Origin: Legionella shakespearei DSM 23087
GTDB taxonomy: Bacteria; Pseudomonadota; Gammaproteobacteria; Legionellales; Legionellaceae
Assembly (NCBI RefSeq): GCF_000373765.1
Contig: NZ_KB892393.1
Coordinates: 62,001 to 126,000, forward strand
DNA length: 64,000 nucleotides
Direction: 5' to 3'
Part shown: positions 13,984 through 20,118 of the stretch, one piece after another
Numbering within the stretch: the stretch's first letter is position 1
Layout of the letters: each line of letters starts with the position of its first letter
The notes under the pieces: generated by a model
Database searches by the model: none
Seen by the model: the letters and a program-made list of their open reading frames with translations, nothing else
Told to the model about the DNA's origin: nothing
Translations under genes and position numbers: made by a program

Positions 13984-15468
13984 ATGGATAACGACGACAA
14001 AGTACTGAAGCTTCCTTACAGTTTTGCCAAGAACAATGGACTGGTCATTGGTGACATTAAAAATGAAAAAGCGCTTGTTTATCACCTGGCCAGCACGTCA
14101 CTCCAGGCTCTTGCTGAGGTAAAGCGAATAGTACAATGTGAATTGGATACCAAACAGGTTGATGAAACAACTTTTCAACAGCATCTTGCGCAGATTTATC
14201 AGTCCAAATCATCCATTCTGGATGCGGCGGAAGGAATGGAAGACGATATGGATCTTTCCATGCTCGCCAGTCAATTACCCGTTAGCGAAGACTTATTGGA
14301 AAATCAGGATGATGCACCAATTATTCGCTTACTCAATGCCTTATTTACTCAAGCCATCAAATTTAAGGCATCAGATATCCATATAGAAACTTACGAAGAC
14401 AGGGTTTTGGTTCGTAATCGTATTGATGGCGTATTGCAGGAAGTACTGGAAATTCAACGTGCTATAGCACCGCTTGTCATATCCAGGGTTAAGGTTATGG
14501 CAAAACTAGATATTGCTGAAAAGCGTATTCCTCAGGATGGACGTATCTCTTTGCGTATAGGCGGACATAATATTGACGTGCGTGTTTCCACTCTTCCTTC
14601 CAATCACGGAGAACGTGTGGTTTTGAGGATATTGGATAAGCAGGCAGCTCAGTTGGATTTAAATTTGTTAGGTATGCCACAATCTACTTTAAAAGCTATG
14701 CGACAGATGATTGCAGAACCCCATGGAATTATTCTGGTTACAGGTCCTACAGGGTCAGGTAAAACAACGTCTTTATACGCCATGCTTACAGAATTGAATC
14801 AGGTGACACGGAATATTCTGACTATTGAAGACCCTATAGAATATGATTTAGCAGGTATTGGACAAACCCAGGTCAATACTAAAGTGCAGATGACCTTCGC
14901 CAAAGGATTAAGGGCTATTCTCAGGCAAGACCCTGATGTGGTCATGATAGGAGAAATTCGTGATCTTGAAACGGCTGAAATTGCCGTTCAGGCCAGTTTG
15001 ACAGGCCATTTGGTCCTATCAACCTTGCATACCAACAGTGCCCTCGGCGCTCTGAACCGTCTCAGAGATATGGGCGTTGAATCCTTTTTAATGTCTTCCA
15101 GTATCGTAGGTTTGATTGCCCAGCGTCTGGTCAGAAGACTATGTCCGCATTGTAAAATTCCACATCAACTTCGTGATGACGAGTTAGAACTGATGGGAGT
15201 TAAACCAGGAACTGATATATCTCAGGTTTATGAGCCTAAAGGTTGTGAGTTATGTAATAACCTGGGCTTTCGCGGTAGAACGGGTATTTATGAGCTTATT
15301 GGCATTGATGAAACACTCAGAGGTATGATTCATAGAAATGATGACATACAGACTCTGGAAAATTATCTGCGCCCCACTACTCCCAGTATTCGTGAGGATG
15401 GATTTAAACGGGTGCTGGCGGGTGATACGTCACTTTCGGAAATTCTGCGTGTGACGAGTCAAAATTAA
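13984..15468 (+). CDS. lspE: Type II secretion ATPase LspE (GspE)
   Basis: LspE is the cytoplasmic hexameric ATPase that drives pseudopilus assembly. The 494-residue protein has an N-terminal region for binding the LspL/LspF platform (1-120). The Walker A motif is GPTGSGKTT with Lys260, and an Asp-box and Walker B segment (VVMIGEIRD) follow. The zinc-binding tetracysteine motif Cys387/Cys390/Cys421/Cys424, typical of GspE rather than of twitching ATPases, is present. It lies 4 bp after lspD in the same operon. Other T2S genes are not in this window, consistent with the scattered lsp loci of Legionella. A palindromic repeat array begins 10 bp after the stop. Confidence 0.96.
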   Translation: MDNDDKVLKLPYSFAKNNGLVIGDIKNEKALVYHLASTSLQALAEVKRIVQCELDTKQVDETTFQQHLAQIYQSKSSILDAAEGMEDDMDLSMLASQLPVSEDLLENQDDAPIIRLLNALFTQAIKFKASDIHIETYEDRVLVRNRIDGVLQEVLEIQRAIAPLVISRVKVMAKLDIAEKRIPQDGRISLRIGGHNIDVRVSTLPSNHGERVVLRILDKQAAQLDLNLLGMPQSTLKAMRQMIAEPHGIILVTGPTGSGKTTSLYAMLTELNQVTRNILTIEDPIEYDLAGIGQTQVNTKVQMTFAKGLRAILRQDPDVVMIGEIRDLETAEIAVQASLTGHLVLSTLHTNSALGALNRLRDMGVESFLMSSSIVGLIAQRLVRRLCPHCKIPHQLRDDELELMGVKPGTDISQVYEPKGCELCNNLGFRGRTGIYELIGIDETLRGMIHRNDDIQTLENYLRPTTPSIREDGFKRVLAGDTSLSEILRVTSQN

Positions 15469-15477
15469 TTTGATGGA

Positions 15478-16121
15478 TGCTTCGAGACGGGGTTACCACC
15501 CCTCCTCAGCACGAACGGGCCGGTGAGTAGGATGGGCTAAGAAAACCCTTATTTTGAGTTCACATCAGTCCTGAATAACACCCTAATCTTTTTGGCACTC
15601 GCACAATCCGTTCGTGCTGAGGAGGCGCGGCTTTTTTGCGCCGTCTCGAAGCATGGGCACAGACTTTTGCTCTGAGCATGCTTCGAGACGGGGTTACCAC
15701 CCCTCCTCAGCACGAACGGGCCGGTGCGTGGGATGGGATAATAAAACCCTTATTTTGAGTTCACATGGGTTCTGAATAACACCGTACCTTTTTGCCCTCG
15801 CACAATCCGTTCGTGCTGAGGAGGCGCGGCTTTTTGCGCCGTCTCGAAGCATTGTCACAGATTTTTTGCCTTGGTGCCTGCTTCGAGACGGGGTTACCAC
15901 TCCTCCTCAGCACGAACGGGTCGGTGGGTGGGATGGGATAATAAAACCTTTATTTCGAATTCACATCAGTTCTGAATAACACAGTAGCTTTTTTTTGCAC
16001 TCGCACAATCCGTTCGTGCTGAGGAGGCGCGGCTTTTTGCGCCGTCTCGAAGCATTGGCACAAACTTTTTGCCTTGGTGCCTGCTTCGAGACGGGGTTAC
16101 CGTCTTCTCAGCACGAACGGT
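15478..16121. repeat. Tandem array of C-type palindromic units (period about 200 bp)
   Basis: Units start with TGCTTCGAGACGGGGTTACC at 15478, 15679, 15879 and 16082, giving periods of 201, 200 and 203 bp. The fourth unit is truncated. Each full unit is itself an inverted repeat. Its left arm (TGCTTCGAGACGG ... CCTCCTCAGCACGAACGG) returns as CCGTTCGTGCTGAGGAGG ... CCGTCTCGAAGCA, around an AT-rich centre with ATAAAACC and TCTGAATAACAC. The same unit occurs inverted at 38076-38334. The array occupies the gap between the convergent genes lspE and the propeller protein. The unit is too long and too self-complementary to be CRISPR. Confidence 0.93.
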
Positions 16122-16164
16122 TCAGGAGATTTAGTCAAGACTTCGGTTGTCTAACGAGCGTCAG

Positions 16165-16192
16165 TTCCCGGCTGCAAGCAGACCGGGCTACG
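16165..16192. repeat. E-type short palindrome
   Basis: TCCCGGCTGCAAGCAGACCG is followed by GGCTACG. This is the reverse complement of the E element GTAGCCCGGTCTGCTTGCAGCCGGGA seen at 38014, 49886, 54960 and elsewhere. It lies 34 bp beyond the stop of the minus-strand propeller gene and could terminate it. Confidence 0.75.
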
Positions 16193-16225
16193 AGCCGGTG
16201 CCGTGGCCGGATTAAGGTTGTGCCC

Positions 16226-17401
16226 CTAACCAAACTCTATGCTTTGCCCATGAGTGACCTGATAAAGAACTGACTTCACTTTAAAGCGCACGTCCTTACT
16301 CAGGCTGTTTGCTACAGTCAGATAAAGAAAACCATCCATATGAAAGACATGCGCTTTGCTGCCTCCAAAAGTCGGAATGTTTTGGACGACAACAAATTTG
16401 CCATCTTTCCATTGATACAATGGCGACTCCAAATCTGTTTTAGGATTAGTGCGTCCGCCTGTTATGTGGTTCATACGAAAAAGATAATGCTCATTATCTA
16501 AAGTAAAATAGGCAAAACTGCGGCCACCCTGCCCCTCCAGTTTTTGATACGGAGTGAATAACTTGCCATCCCAGACATAAATTGCTGAATCAGTACTGAT
16601 ATTTGCAAAGGCCAGATAATGCTTCTGATCAATAGTAAAATAATCAAAATCGCGTCCGCCATTTCCCTTAAACTGCTGATAAGTCACAAACCGGGTCCCA
16701 TCCCACCGGTAAAGAGTAGACTGATTTAAATGATCTGCAAAAGCGAGAAATACCGTACCATTCAAAGTGAAGGACTTGAATGAATATCCCCAGGAAGATG
16801 GAATGATTTGAAAAGGAATAAACTGTTTGCCATTCCATTCATAAATCATCGATTGGGTTTGTGCAGGATCAGGCTTTTTATCGGGGTTGACCACTCCATT
16901 GGCGATTGCCAGAAAGTGTCTTTTTCCTATATTAAAATAATAAATCTGTTTCGCAGCAAAAGTATAAAATTGTTGTACCGGATAGAAAAAACGACCATCC
17001 CAGCGATACAGCATGGAATAAGTATGATGATTAAACGGAGGTTTTGGACCCGAGTTAACAGAAGGTATTGCAAGATAAGAATTACCCTCCATGGTAAAAT
17101 AGGTAGCCCCTTCATTGCCATGTCCAGGTATACGTTGATACTCCACAAATTTCTCGTTTTTCCTTTTCAAAAGAACTACGTCCACATCCGCATCACCACC
17201 ATTCATAGAAGCAGGAGTATCGGGTATGTCTTTGGCAAGCTGGGCTATAGCAATATAATGCTCTTCATTGATGGTGAATGGAGTCAATTCACGGGCTCCA
17301 GAAGTATCAAAATACTGGTCGGGAGTCAGCAATTGGCCTGCAAAGGTGAGCCCAGGGAAGCAAAGCTGAATTATTATTACAGCACCATATAGAAATTTCA
17401 T
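16226..17401 (-). CDS. Exported seven-repeat EAR/EPTP-like beta-propeller protein
   Basis: The 391-residue product has a signal peptide (MKFLYGAVIIIQLCFPGLTFAG). Seven degenerate repeats of about 42-55 residues fill the rest of the protein. Each follows the pattern F-T/N-I-x-x-x-x-Y/F-L-A-I/F-A-N, then S-x-I/L-Y-x-W-D/N-G-K-x-F-x-P/T-Y-Q. Clear examples are YFTIDQKHYLAFAN and IYVWDGKLFTPYQ. This is the signature of EAR/EPTP repeats, known from animal LGI1/epitempin, where seven repeats form a seven-bladed propeller. A role in binding a surface ligand is inference. I chose ATG 17401, with GGA 7 bp upstream; TTG 17413 and ATG 17407 are alternatives. The gene diverges from the next one with a 97-bp shared promoter region. 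Confidence 0.8.
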   Translation of the reverse strand: MKFLYGAVIIIQLCFPGLTFAGQLLTPDQYFDTSGARELTPFTINEEHYIAIAQLAKDIPDTPASMNGGDADVDVVLLKRKNEKFVEYQRIPGHGNEGATYFTMEGNSYLAIPSVNSGPKPPFNHHTYSMLYRWDGRFFYPVQQFYTFAAKQIYYFNIGKRHFLAIANGVVNPDKKPDPAQTQSMIYEWNGKQFIPFQIIPSSWGYSFKSFTLNGTVFLAFADHLNQSTLYRWDGTRFVTYQQFKGNGGRDFDYFTIDQKHYLAFANISTDSAIYVWDGKLFTPYQKLEGQGGRSFAYFTLDNEHYLFRMNHITGGRTNPKTDLESPLYQWKDGKFVVVQNIPTFGGSKAHVFHMDGFLYLTVANSLSKDVRFKVKSVLYQVTHGQSIEFG

Positions 17402-17498
17402 AAGCATATCCAATATTTGCTAAGGATTGACCCTGCTATTTAATATCGTAATAATAGAAGTCATTCAGGATTAAGTAATCGTTCAGGGACGTTAGCCA

Positions 17499-18794
17499 AT
17501 GAAAAATCATACCCTAGTTGTTTTCATAATGCTATGCACTTTATTGTTCAGTGCTGCAGTTAATAGTACTGATCAAACAACAGGTTATAGCACTCCTCCC
17601 CAGTTTATGGATCTGTATTTTGACTTCACTGGCAAAGAGGAAAGTGATTTTCCCAAAGGTCAAAAAACCATAGCTGATTATTTAATTCAATCAGAAAAGG
17701 ATAAATACAAAGCCGATAACGGTCCCTTAATTATGTTCCTTGATTCGTCAGTTTATATTTATGATCAAAACCGTAAATTGCTCTATTCAAAACTTATGCG
17801 AACCAACAGGGCGTCAGGTTTTTTCGAAATGACGGCTATATCCCATATAGGTCCGGCTTTGTCTTATCTGGCCAAGGTAAAACAAAATGGCGATCCCGCA
17901 TGGAAAACAGGCATGGCTGACTTGCTCGAAAGCATTAAAGCAGTGAGAGCACTTAATGCCCAGGCGGAGAATAACTGGCTGGATCAGGCTAATATCAAAG
18001 CCTGGCAACCTCATAAAGATCAAATAAGGGCAATGATAGATTATGCTTTATCTATGGCTGGTAATTATATTGTTTCTGTACAAAACGGTGCTGCTTTTGA
18101 TTTGAGTTCTGTGCAGCAAAACTTTTTAAACGGGAATGCAGAATACCCTATACCCTATAATTCCGTCATGGTAGCCACCTTCATGCTCACCGCCATGCAA
18201 AGTATGTCTGCAATTCATGATGATTTGGCTAATTTGAGCATTGACTGGCCGCATGCCAAAGTACTTGTCCGAAACCAGGCGGGTTCTAATGTTTCTTCAG
18301 GCCTGACTACTGGTACCAATTGGATGGTACCCTTTTTAAATGCCTTGTCTAACAACCAGATTCCTGCTGACCGAATTCTTATTACCCCCTATGCCCAGGT
18401 GCAGGCAGATGTTGGGAAAGATCCCTTATCTGAAGCGTCCTATCAATATTATACCAATGCAGTTTGGGGCAGCATTTACAATCGCAGCAAAATTTCTCAG
18501 GCCGTATTTACAGATTTGGAAACCATATACCTGCCCGATCGACCGGCTATCCCCGGAGATTATGCTTACAGTAAAGCATCTGATGTAAATGATTTTATGG
18601 TACGGTTAAAACATTCACTCCAGGATCCACGTGAAATGTTATCCAATACAGTTGGTTTTTGGATGGCGGGAGAAATGCAAAATAAAAATTGGGATGTTAC
18701 TAAAGTTGCACTTCCCGGGCTGACGACAGGATTTCCAGAAGGGATAAACGCTTATCCAACGGAGAATCCACCTATTAAAAATGCAACTCAATAG
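17499..18794 (+). CDS. Exported protein of unknown function
   Basis: The 431-residue protein begins with a signal peptide (MKNHTLVVFIMLCTLLFSAAVNS), so it is probably periplasmic or secreted, possibly a type II substrate. The rest is soluble. An N-terminal stretch has I-M-F-L-D-S-S-V-Y-I-Y-D, followed by helical segments (about 110-200) and a Ser/Asn-rich region. No catalytic motif is recognised. It may belong to a Legionella-restricted DUF family (I considered DUF5624), but I cannot confirm this from sequence alone. It is divergent from the propeller gene, so the two could be co-regulated. A D-type palindrome follows the stop by 13 bp. Confidence 0.65.
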   Translation: MKNHTLVVFIMLCTLLFSAAVNSTDQTTGYSTPPQFMDLYFDFTGKEESDFPKGQKTIADYLIQSEKDKYKADNGPLIMFLDSSVYIYDQNRKLLYSKLMRTNRASGFFEMTAISHIGPALSYLAKVKQNGDPAWKTGMADLLESIKAVRALNAQAENNWLDQANIKAWQPHKDQIRAMIDYALSMAGNYIVSVQNGAAFDLSSVQQNFLNGNAEYPIPYNSVMVATFMLTAMQSMSAIHDDLANLSIDWPHAKVLVRNQAGSNVSSGLTTGTNWMVPFLNALSNNQIPADRILITPYAQVQADVGKDPLSEASYQYYTNAVWGSIYNRSKISQAVFTDLETIYLPDRPAIPGDYAYSKASDVNDFMVRLKHSLQDPREMLSNTVGFWMAGEMQNKNWDVTKVALPGLTTGFPEGINAYPTENPPIKNATQ

Positions 18795-18807
18795 AATCTA
18801 GTGTGTT

Positions 18808-18897
18808 GTAGCCCGTATTAGGCGTCAGCCGTAATACGGGATCGAAGTGGCAATAAACTTATTTCCCGTATTACGGCTGACGCCTAATACGGGCTAC
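18808..18897. repeat. D-type palindrome (34-bp arms)
   Basis: GTAGCCCGTATTAGGCGTCA... at 18808-18841 is perfectly inverted at 18864-18897, around a centre containing TCGAAGTGG. Each arm is itself a hairpin (GTATTA ... TAATAC). It lies between the convergent 431-residue protein and the kinase gene and could terminate both. Confidence 0.9.
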
Positions 18898-18957
18898 GAA
18901 ACTGCCTCTTTCCCGGATTCACGTCAAACACCTGTCAATTACTGCGTTGATGCAGGC

Positions 18958-20118
18958 TTATTCAATGCCATTTCCAAATCCGAGATATCCTCCATAATCA
19001 TCCTCTTCTTCATCAAACTTGAATATTCCATCATGTGCTGTTGGTGTGAAGACACTGTTTGGTTCCAATGTAGCTCTTAAACCTTCGAATTGCTCGAGCA
19101 GATCAGCCAGATCTGGCCTCTGACTCATAATAAGCTGACACATATTTTCAAAAATGATTTTTAATTCACGGTGACACCCGGGTTTTGGATCGAGTTTGTA
19201 AAACAGATTATTAAAGGCCGGTGCACAAGCCTCATCATACTTGTCCCTACCGTGATCCAGTTGACGGTAACCCCATAAAAACATCAAAGTACGCCCCATG
19301 GCATAAATATCTGTTTTTTCTGTTTTGTCATTGAACGTGCTATAACATTCAGGTGCAGCATAGGGAGGCGAGCCCATTTTGGCATTCGCATCAGAATATT
19401 CCTTTCTTTTAATAAACCCGAAATCAATTATATAAATTTCAAATTGAGAACCGTTTTTATAAACGAGAATATTATCTGGCTTAATGTCTCTGTGTACATA
19501 TCCCAAATCATGAACTTGCTCCTTTAAGGCTGTTAATAAAGCAATGGACAGGTCAAGCCGCTCCTGCAAAGTAAGTTCATTATCTTCAATCATTTTTAAT
19601 AATTGAACGCCAGGCAGCTCTCTCATGATCATGTATGTTTTATTATCAACCTGAACCATGGGTTTAGCATGAAAAATTTCCGGTTTATCATGTAAACGGT
19701 GCCAGGTGTCTGAGCGTTGCATAGCCTCGGCTTCGCTTACCATGAGTTTCAAATGCTCTGCAGTTTTTTCTCTGATATTTTGTTCTTTGACTAATCTGAT
19801 TCGACCTTCCTGGCGTTTCTTTACTAATAATTTGCCGTCATTATCAAAGGATAAGGTGTAACGGCAACGATAGTATTTGCCGTATGTACCTTCGTCATTA
19901 AATACTTCGTTATCGATCACTTCATAACGCACGCGTGGCCCAGGAATTCCATCACGAGGTTTGTCTGAACTGAAATGCTTGATAATTCTGAAGCCCAGTT
20001 TTAATTCGTCATGCTCACCAACAGCCCAGAGCCTGGTATCATCGTCTTTTTTCAGGAGTTTTGCCAATGCAATTTTTGCATCGTCATTCAGATTATCAAA
20101 GTCATTAATATCTATCAT
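18958..20118 (-). CDS. Eukaryotic-like Ser/Thr protein kinase, LegK-type effector candidate
   Basis: The 386-residue protein has a kinase domain at about residues 60-330. The catalytic loop H-R-D-I-K-P-D-N has Asp211, D-F-G follows at about 230, and the activation-segment end is A-P-E. A VAIK-type lysine is likely in the K-K-R-Q-E-G-R region or nearby, and a Glu-rich alphaC helix precedes M-I-M-R-E-L-P-G. The N-terminus is unusual, with a long lead (1-60) before the first kinase strands. The last 25 residues contain EEEDD, resembling the E-block of Dot/Icm substrates. There is no signal peptide or transmembrane segment, so it is not a PknB-type receptor. It is similar in layout to LegK kinases of L. 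pneumophila; the exact orthologue is not claimed. Confidence 0.82.
   Translation of the reverse strand: MIDINDFDNLNDDAKIALAKLLKKDDDTRLWAVGEHDELKLGFRIIKHFSSDKPRDGIPGPRVRYEVIDNEVFNDEGTYGKYYRCRYTLSFDNDGKLLVKKRQEGRIRLVKEQNIREKTAEHLKLMVSEAEAMQRSDTWHRLHDKPEIFHAKPMVQVDNKTYMIMRELPGVQLLKMIEDNELTLQERLDLSIALLTALKEQVHDLGYVHRDIKPDNILVYKNGSQFEIYIIDFGFIKRKEYSDANAKMGSPPYAAPECYSTFNDKTEKTDIYAMGRTLMFLWGYRQLDHGRDKYDEACAPAFNNLFYKLDPKPGCHRELKIIFENMCQLIMSQRPDLADLLEQFEGLRATLEPNSVFTPTAHDGIFKFDEEEDDYGGYLGFGNGIE

What the first reader, a model, noticed from the sequence alone, without database searches (positions are those of the whole stretch)
16226..17401. Bacterial exported protein made of seven EAR/EPTP-like repeats
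The sequence shows seven repeats of the F-T-I-x-x-x-x-Y-L-A-F-A-N / I-Y-x-W-D-G-K-x-F-x-P-Y-Q type after a signal peptide. EAR/EPTP repeats are known mainly from animal LGI proteins and adhesion GPCRs, where they form a seven-bladed propeller binding other surface proteins. An exported bacterial version in an intracellular pathogen could act outside the bacterium. That role is inference.
Basis: partly seen in the sequence, partly recalled or inferred. Interest (0 to 1): 0.72.

Follow-up and report, generated by a model that had tools for sequence, protein, structure and literature searches.

The report
Bacterial EPTP propeller with partner gene
A Legionella-type bacterium makes an exported propeller-shaped protein of a type known mainly from animal nerve proteins; its gene usually travels beside one other gene of unknown function, which suggests the two proteins work as a pair rather than as a copy of a host protein.

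Summary

The host-directed reading is not supported. The gene belongs to a bacterial gene pair with a DUF5624 gene, next door in the window (17499-18794). The two are adjacent in 18 of 22 EPTP-bearing Legionellales genomes and in 13 of 13 further standalone loci, among them actinomycetes and rhizobia. Presence matches exactly in 200 actinomycete-family genomes (the same 6) and in 72,556 plasmids (the same 2). In 30 pairs compared, both proteins carry an export-type signal (17) or neither does (13).

Best explanation: the propeller is a partner or scaffold of the DUF5624 protein, exported with it in most Legionella carriers. The shared pathway is well supported; physical contact is inferred; the reaction or ligand is unknown. 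DUF5624 has one solved structure (4JX2, lpg1979) and no clear fold relative found. I found no paper on the pair.

The parts
16226..17401 (-). EPTP propeller gene, 391 aa, ATG at 17401
   Evidence: PF03736 E 8e-52
17339..17401 (-). Sec-type signal peptide, residues 1-21
   Evidence: read from the translation; hydrophobic stretch scored
17300..17335 (-). closing strand (residues 23-34) that completes blade 7
   Evidence: AlphaFold2 model
17129..17296 (-). blade 1 (residues 36-91), with the conserved B-C loop LAKDIPDTPASMNGGDADVD
16958..17104 (-). blade 2 (residues 100-148)
16802..16948 (-). blade 3 (residues 152-200)
16670..16789 (-). blade 4 (residues 205-244)
16538..16657 (-). blade 5 (residues 249-288)
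16367..16525 (-). blade 6 (residues 293-345)
16244..16363 (-). blade 7, strands A-C (residues 347-386)
17402..17498 (.). 97-base gap between the two divergent genes; possible shared control region
   Evidence: promoter-like hits in 15400-19000 are about as many as shuffles give (8 against 7.3)
17499..18794 (+). DUF5624 protein, 431 aa, with its own signal peptide; partner gene
   Evidence: PF18538 E 1.1e-53; relative of solved 4JX2/lpg1979, E 1.6e-157

Best explanation
The gene encodes an exported, seven-bladed EPTP (EAR) beta-propeller that works together with the DUF5624 protein encoded next to it. Most likely the propeller binds the DUF5624 protein, through its D-A/B-C loop face or central channel, and acts as its scaffold, specificity or regulatory subunit, while DUF5624 carries the ligand-binding or catalytic function. 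In most Legionella carriers both have Sec-type signals and go to the periplasm or beyond; in the Hyphomicrobiales MAG both carry twin-arginine-like signals; in Streptomyces, the Lentzea family, Sinorhizobium, G714 and one Legionellaceae lineage neither has a signal, so both probably stay in the cytosol, sometimes with an alpha/beta-hydrolase-fold third protein. Shown here: fold (predicted, confident), adjacency, co-occurrence and matching export signals. Inferred: direct contact, which face binds, and that DUF5624 is the active part. Rough odds: fold 0.97, same pathway 0.8, physical complex 0.55, small-molecule chemistry rather than adhesion 0.4.
For: Adjacency: 18 of 22 EPTP-bearing Legionellales genomes (of 143 searched; places; in one, G142, the DUF5624 gene is broken), and 13 of 13 further standalone EPTP loci: G714, Hyphomicrobiales MAG L065, Sinorhizobium, two S. 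mirabilis copies, six actinomycete genomes, and MAGs L060 and L063, whose order is not told. Co-occurrence: Legionellales EPTP 22, DUF5624 28, both 19 (p 4e-14); in 200 genomes of the Lentzea family, whose centre was chosen as a carrier, the same 6; in 72,556 plasmids the same 2; in a 229-genome class sample G714 is the only genome outside the family with DUF5624, and it has a full EPTP. Gene order varies (divergent, DUF-EPTP, EPTP-DUF), so linkage is kept against rearrangement; several tandem pairs overlap stop and start codons. Export signals agree in 30 of 30 pairs (17 both, 13 neither); on both gene trees that label needs three changes (at least two forced), around the same rows L063 and L065. 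Distance matrices correlate at r 0.85 (0 of 2000 permutations). DA+BC loops are more conserved than AB+CD loops (0.61 against 0.51, p 0.016 per residue, 0.03 per loop).
Against: No complex was modelled or measured. DUF5624 occurs without EPTP in 9 of 28 Legionellales genomes, and no EPTP remnant (tblastn 1e-3) lies in the roughly 12 kb fetched around it in any of the nine, so DUF5624 can act alone. EPTP occurs without DUF5624 in 3 of 22 (G044, G111, G115), and in G037 the two lie on different contigs. G156 (giant ORF) shows EPTP matches with no DUF5624 in the 19 kb fetched, and G627 has one weak repeat match and no DUF5624. The p values and the mirror correlation are not corrected for shared ancestry. 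The DUF5624 tree carries long-branch warnings, L063 among them. The loop contrast comes mainly from the D-A loops (0.68); B-C loops as a class (0.59) are no more conserved than the whole protein (0.60). No reaction, ligand or phenotype is known.
Confidence: 0.6

Rival explanations
1. Host-directed mimic: the exported propeller imitates an animal- or protist-type EPTP ligand and binds host surface proteins, reaching the host by type II secretion.
For: Signal peptide; closest fold LGI1; the gene lies beside the type II secretion genes gspD/gspE in the window; 16 of the 21 loci are Legionella or Legionellaceae by title, and Legionella live inside protists and macrophages (general knowledge).
Against: Versions without export signal and versions in non-pathogens; partner gene conserved across phyla; identity to LGI1 only 15-18%; gspD/gspE nearby only in the window and L053-L056 of 21 related loci, within the flanks fetched; 121 of 143 Legionellales genomes lack a match.
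Confidence: 0.12
2. Metabolic module: propeller, DUF5624 and, in some lineages, an alpha/beta-hydrolase-fold protein act on a small molecule as an enzyme complex; Legionella moved the pair to the periplasm.
For: S. mirabilis carries two clusters of isochorismatase, short-chain dehydrogenase, (called in one) an FAD-binding protein, EPTP, DUF5624 and alpha/beta-hydrolase fold; hydrolase-DUF5624-EPTP order also in G714, L064, L068 and L070.
Against: In the 11 loci only EPTP and DUF5624 recur widely; other neighbours differ. The hydrolase has Ala where the nucleophile is expected (GFAS[AG]GH; my reading of the elbow), so it may not be a hydrolase. DUF5624 has no clear enzyme relative among solved folds.
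Confidence: 0.3
3. Envelope or adhesion module: the pair binds a cell-surface or matrix component such as a glycan, in the bacterium's own envelope or biofilm.
For: Export signals in most Legionella carriers; EPTP repeats also occur in a giant 19,352-aa ORF of another proteobacterium that looks like a surface adhesin (reading by eye).
Against: 13 of 30 pairs show no export signal. The giant ORF has no DUF5624 in the 19 kb fetched.
Confidence: 0.15

Closest known systems
LGI1 EPTP domain (animal LGI family; PDB 5y2z, 5y31)
   Same: EPTP repeat family, seven-bladed four-stranded propeller with the N-terminal strand closing blade 7 (PMC5906670 section 6, read); [quoted passage not shown]
   Different: 15-18% identity; no LRR domain, no Cys260-Cys286-type disulfide, and in the window protein no acidic residue at the LGI1 calcium-ligand positions; its gene is paired with DUF5624, whereas LGI1's partner is ADAM22.
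DUF5624 family, PDB 4JX2 (L. pneumophila lpg1979, 'putative secreted protein')
   Different: Its function is unknown, and searches for DUF5624, PF18538, 4JX2 and lpg1979 found no held paper.
EPTP domain reported in a sponge-symbiont thaumarchaeon (PMC7848895)
   Same: A prokaryotic EPTP domain, listed there among eukaryotic-like protein domains.
   Different: Only a domain mention in the passages read; no partner gene discussed in them.

Membership tests
EPTP/EAR repeat family (PF03736) | profile score over the curated cut-off | tested here: met
   173.5 bits against 21
EPTP/EAR repeat family (PF03736) | seven repeats forming a seven-bladed, four-stranded propeller | tested here: met
   seven stretches at max_evalue 10, five at 0.001; 28 strands in a predicted model
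EPTP/EAR repeat family (PF03736) | fold nearer to the LGI1 EPTP domain than to other propellers | tested here: met
LGI proteins | N-terminal LRR domain | tested here: not met
   Pfam finds EPTP only, at E up to 10; the propeller starts directly after the signal peptide
LGI proteins | calcium site (Asp334, Glu336, Asp381, Glu383) in the channel | tested here: not met
   G98, T100, Q152, Y154 in the window protein; Q152/Y154 from the alignment, with LGI1 numbers counted by me, G98/T100 by hand register; across 30 relatives D occurs at 98 in 12 and E at 100 in 10
LGI proteins | Cys260-Cys286 disulfide | tested here: not met
   no Cys after residue 24
LGI proteins | binds ADAM22/ADAM23 | not testable with these tools
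   -
Type II secretion substrate | Sec or Tat signal peptide | tested here: met
   (hydrophobicity and reading, no SignalP)
Type II secretion substrate | Lsp-dependent appearance outside the cell | not testable with these tools
   bench step referred
EPTP-DUF5624 gene pair (proposed here) | adjacent DUF5624 gene | tested here: met
   17499-18794, 97 bases away, divergent
EPTP-DUF5624 gene pair (proposed here) | both proteins with matching export signals | tested here: met
   both N-termini hydrophobic (mean Kyte-Doolittle maxima 2.27 and 3.12)
EPTP-DUF5624 gene pair (proposed here) | physical complex | not tested
   only single-chain prediction was available

The most novel reading that the evidence does not exclude
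The EPTP propeller is at root a bacterial subunit: with DUF5624, a protein without a clear fold relative in the PDB, it forms an undescribed two-protein (sometimes three-protein) complex shared by actinomycetes, rhizobia and gammaproteobacteria, which has moved between cytosol and envelope as a unit. The animal LGI-ADAM pair, a propeller capping an enzyme-like domain, would then be a later use of the same capping mode.
Probability: 0.3. Interest if true: 0.68.

Novelty: new variant of a known kind. Interest (0 to 1): 0.5.

Why it matters
It turns a lone 'animal-like domain in a pathogen' into a testable bacterial system: a propeller of a medically known family tied to a solved but unexplained protein family (DUF5624). 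The pair gives a lead on what DUF5624 does, carriers such as Streptomyces and Sinorhizobium exist to test it in, and the co-switching of export signals is an argument that the two proteins share a compartment and task. It also warns against reading EPTP domains in bacteria as host mimicry.

Tried and rejected
Host-derived gene (recent transfer from an animal): rejected as a lead, because bacterial members are closer to each other (34-62% to the window protein) than to LGI1 (15-18%). No animal sequences beyond PDB chains were at hand, so no tree with animals was built.

Phage or viral carriage: no relative found in viral contigs or phages.

Type II secretion linkage by neighbourhood: gspD/gspE sit near it only in the window and L053-L056, so the neighbourhood is not used as evidence.

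Shared third gene: the alpha/beta-hydrolase fold is found in only 6 of the 30 pairs, so it is not part of the core.

Remnant EPTP beside solitary DUF5624: none found in nine loci.

Papers: EPTP with bacteria or Legionella (20 of 57 listed, the one hit is unrelated by its passages, 40 of 68 listed, 20 of 22 listed), DUF5624/PF18538 (none), 4JX2 (none), lpg1979 (none). with guessed orthologue tags returned PMC2824747 for one tag; I saw the listing only and did not follow it. (Legionella type II secretion) was seen as a listing only. The library holds open-licence papers only.

Rows dropped: of the 21 loci, L050, L052, L056 and L066 (no adjacent DUF5624 found) and L069 (broken DUF5624) are not in the 30 pairs. 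L066 (frame-split) and L068 (match start not in its frame) are not in structure alignment A2, which holds 19 of the 21 loci plus the window. DUF5624 alignment A3 holds the window and 13 of the 16 other loci with that cluster (L054, L058 and L069 left out). For L062 and L142 the script missed the EPTP N-terminus, and I read it by eye.

Full report

Distribution. PF03736 matches 11 of 45 genomes of the genus, 22 of 140 of the family, 22 of 143 of the order, 5 of 229 of the class (three Legionellaceae, G714 with a full protein, G627 with one weak repeat) and 2 of 398 of the phylum (the window's genome and G156, a 19,352-aa ORF). Named carriers include L. feeleii, waltersii, moravica, quateirensis, bozemanae, parisiensis, tucsonensis, quinlivanii and jamestowniensis, a Hyphomicrobiales MAG and Lentzea fradiae (21 loci). 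In the phylum of Lentzea 1 of 198 genomes matches (Lentzea itself); in its family 6 of 200. Of 72,556 plasmid records, two carry it: Streptomyces mirabilis and Sinorhizobium sp. RAC02. None was found in phages or viral contigs.

The partner. The gene 97 bases away, divergent, is a DUF5624 protein with its own signal peptide (PF18538), related to solved 4JX2, 'putative secreted protein (lpg1979)'. Clustering the ORFs around the 21 named loci and the window, DUF5624 is by far the commonest neighbour: 17 of 22 loci, the next cluster 5; Lentzea's copy was missed there and found. In 143 Legionellales genomes EPTP occurs in 22, DUF5624 in 28, both in 19; they are adjacent in 18 (Fisher 4e-14, uncorrected for ancestry). 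EPTP stands alone in G044, G111 and G115, and DUF5624 alone in nine genomes, without EPTP remnants in the fetched surroundings. Besides these, 13 of 13 standalone EPTP loci have DUF5624 next to them: 11 outside the order, and MAGs L060 and L063, whose order is not told. In 200 genomes of the Lentzea family the same six carry each gene, and in the plasmids the same two records. Order and orientation differ between lineages, and several tandem pairs overlap stop and start.

Export switches together. In 30 pairs I scored the stretch before each domain for hydrophobicity: 17 pairs have a signal-like stretch on both proteins, 13 on neither, none on one only (two N-termini read by eye). The Hyphomicrobiales pair has twin-arginine-like signals on both (by eye). 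On trees of the two proteins the label needs three changes each, at least two forced by well-supported branches, around the same rows L063 and L065 (the DUF5624 tree has long-branch warnings). Copies without signal in the gammaproteobacteria hold 4-6 Cys in the propeller and exported ones 0-1, which fits the compartments; but those of actinomycetes and Sinorhizobium hold only 1-3.

How it may work. Loops on the D-A/B-C side are more conserved than those on the other side (0.61 against 0.51), most of all around blades 7-1-2; the difference comes mainly from the D-A loops, while B-C loops as a class equal the protein's mean. By my reading this is the side from which LGI1 residues 330, 331 and 378 contact ADAM22 (contacts from PMC5906670). 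I therefore propose that this face, or the channel rim, binds DUF5624. The window protein lacks LGI1's calcium-ligand acids and disulfide. DUF5624 shows no clear fold relative beyond 4JX2, so its activity is open. In S. mirabilis two clusters place the pair among an isochorismatase-type hydrolase, a short-chain dehydrogenase and, in one, an FAD-binding protein, followed by an alpha/beta-hydrolase-fold protein; that third protein also precedes the pair in G714, L064, L068 and L070, with Ala where the nucleophile is expected. This favours small-molecule chemistry, weakly.

Against the host-mimic reading: carriers that are not pathogens, versions without signal, a bacterial partner and low identity to LGI1. 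It is not excluded for Legionella alone.

Novelty. The domain family is known and a prokaryotic case is in print (PMC7848895, passages). I found no paper on the EPTP-DUF5624 pair, on DUF5624 or on 4JX2 in the held library (some listings were cut, see Tried and rejected).

Noticed in passing
15464-16120: Three to four tandem copies of a roughly 200-base repeat with inverted arms (CCGTTCGTGCTGAGGAGGCGCGG) between gspE and the EPTP gene. Whether they recur in the genome was not tested.
   Followed up: no
18808-18897: 41-base inverted repeat, 93% complementary, 8-base loop, just after the DUF5624 gene.
   Followed up: no
18958-20118: Ser/Thr kinase gene; best NCBIfam match is the Dot/Icm effector kinase LegK1, but far below its cut-off (145 against 550 bits). 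A relative lies beside the pair in L053-L055 and beside EPTP in L056.
   Followed up: partly
L037/L144 (genome G156): A 19,352-aa open frame with 13 EPTP matches in two blocks, no DUF5624 in the 19 kb fetched: EPTP repeats inside a giant, probably surface protein.
   Followed up: partly
L066 and L069 (L. tunisiensis): One EPTP gene and one DUF5624 gene are split by frame or stop changes; intact relatives exist elsewhere.
   Followed up: no
L124, L126 (S. mirabilis plasmid NZ_CP108478.1): Two closely similar copies of the pair plus an alpha/beta-hydrolase-fold gene, each with isochorismatase and SDR genes upstream.
   Followed up: partly
L064, L068, L070, L124, L126, L143: The module's alpha/beta-hydrolase-fold protein reads GFAS[AG]GH at the nucleophile elbow, with Ala in place of the usual Ser/Asp/Cys (my reading).
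   Followed up: partly
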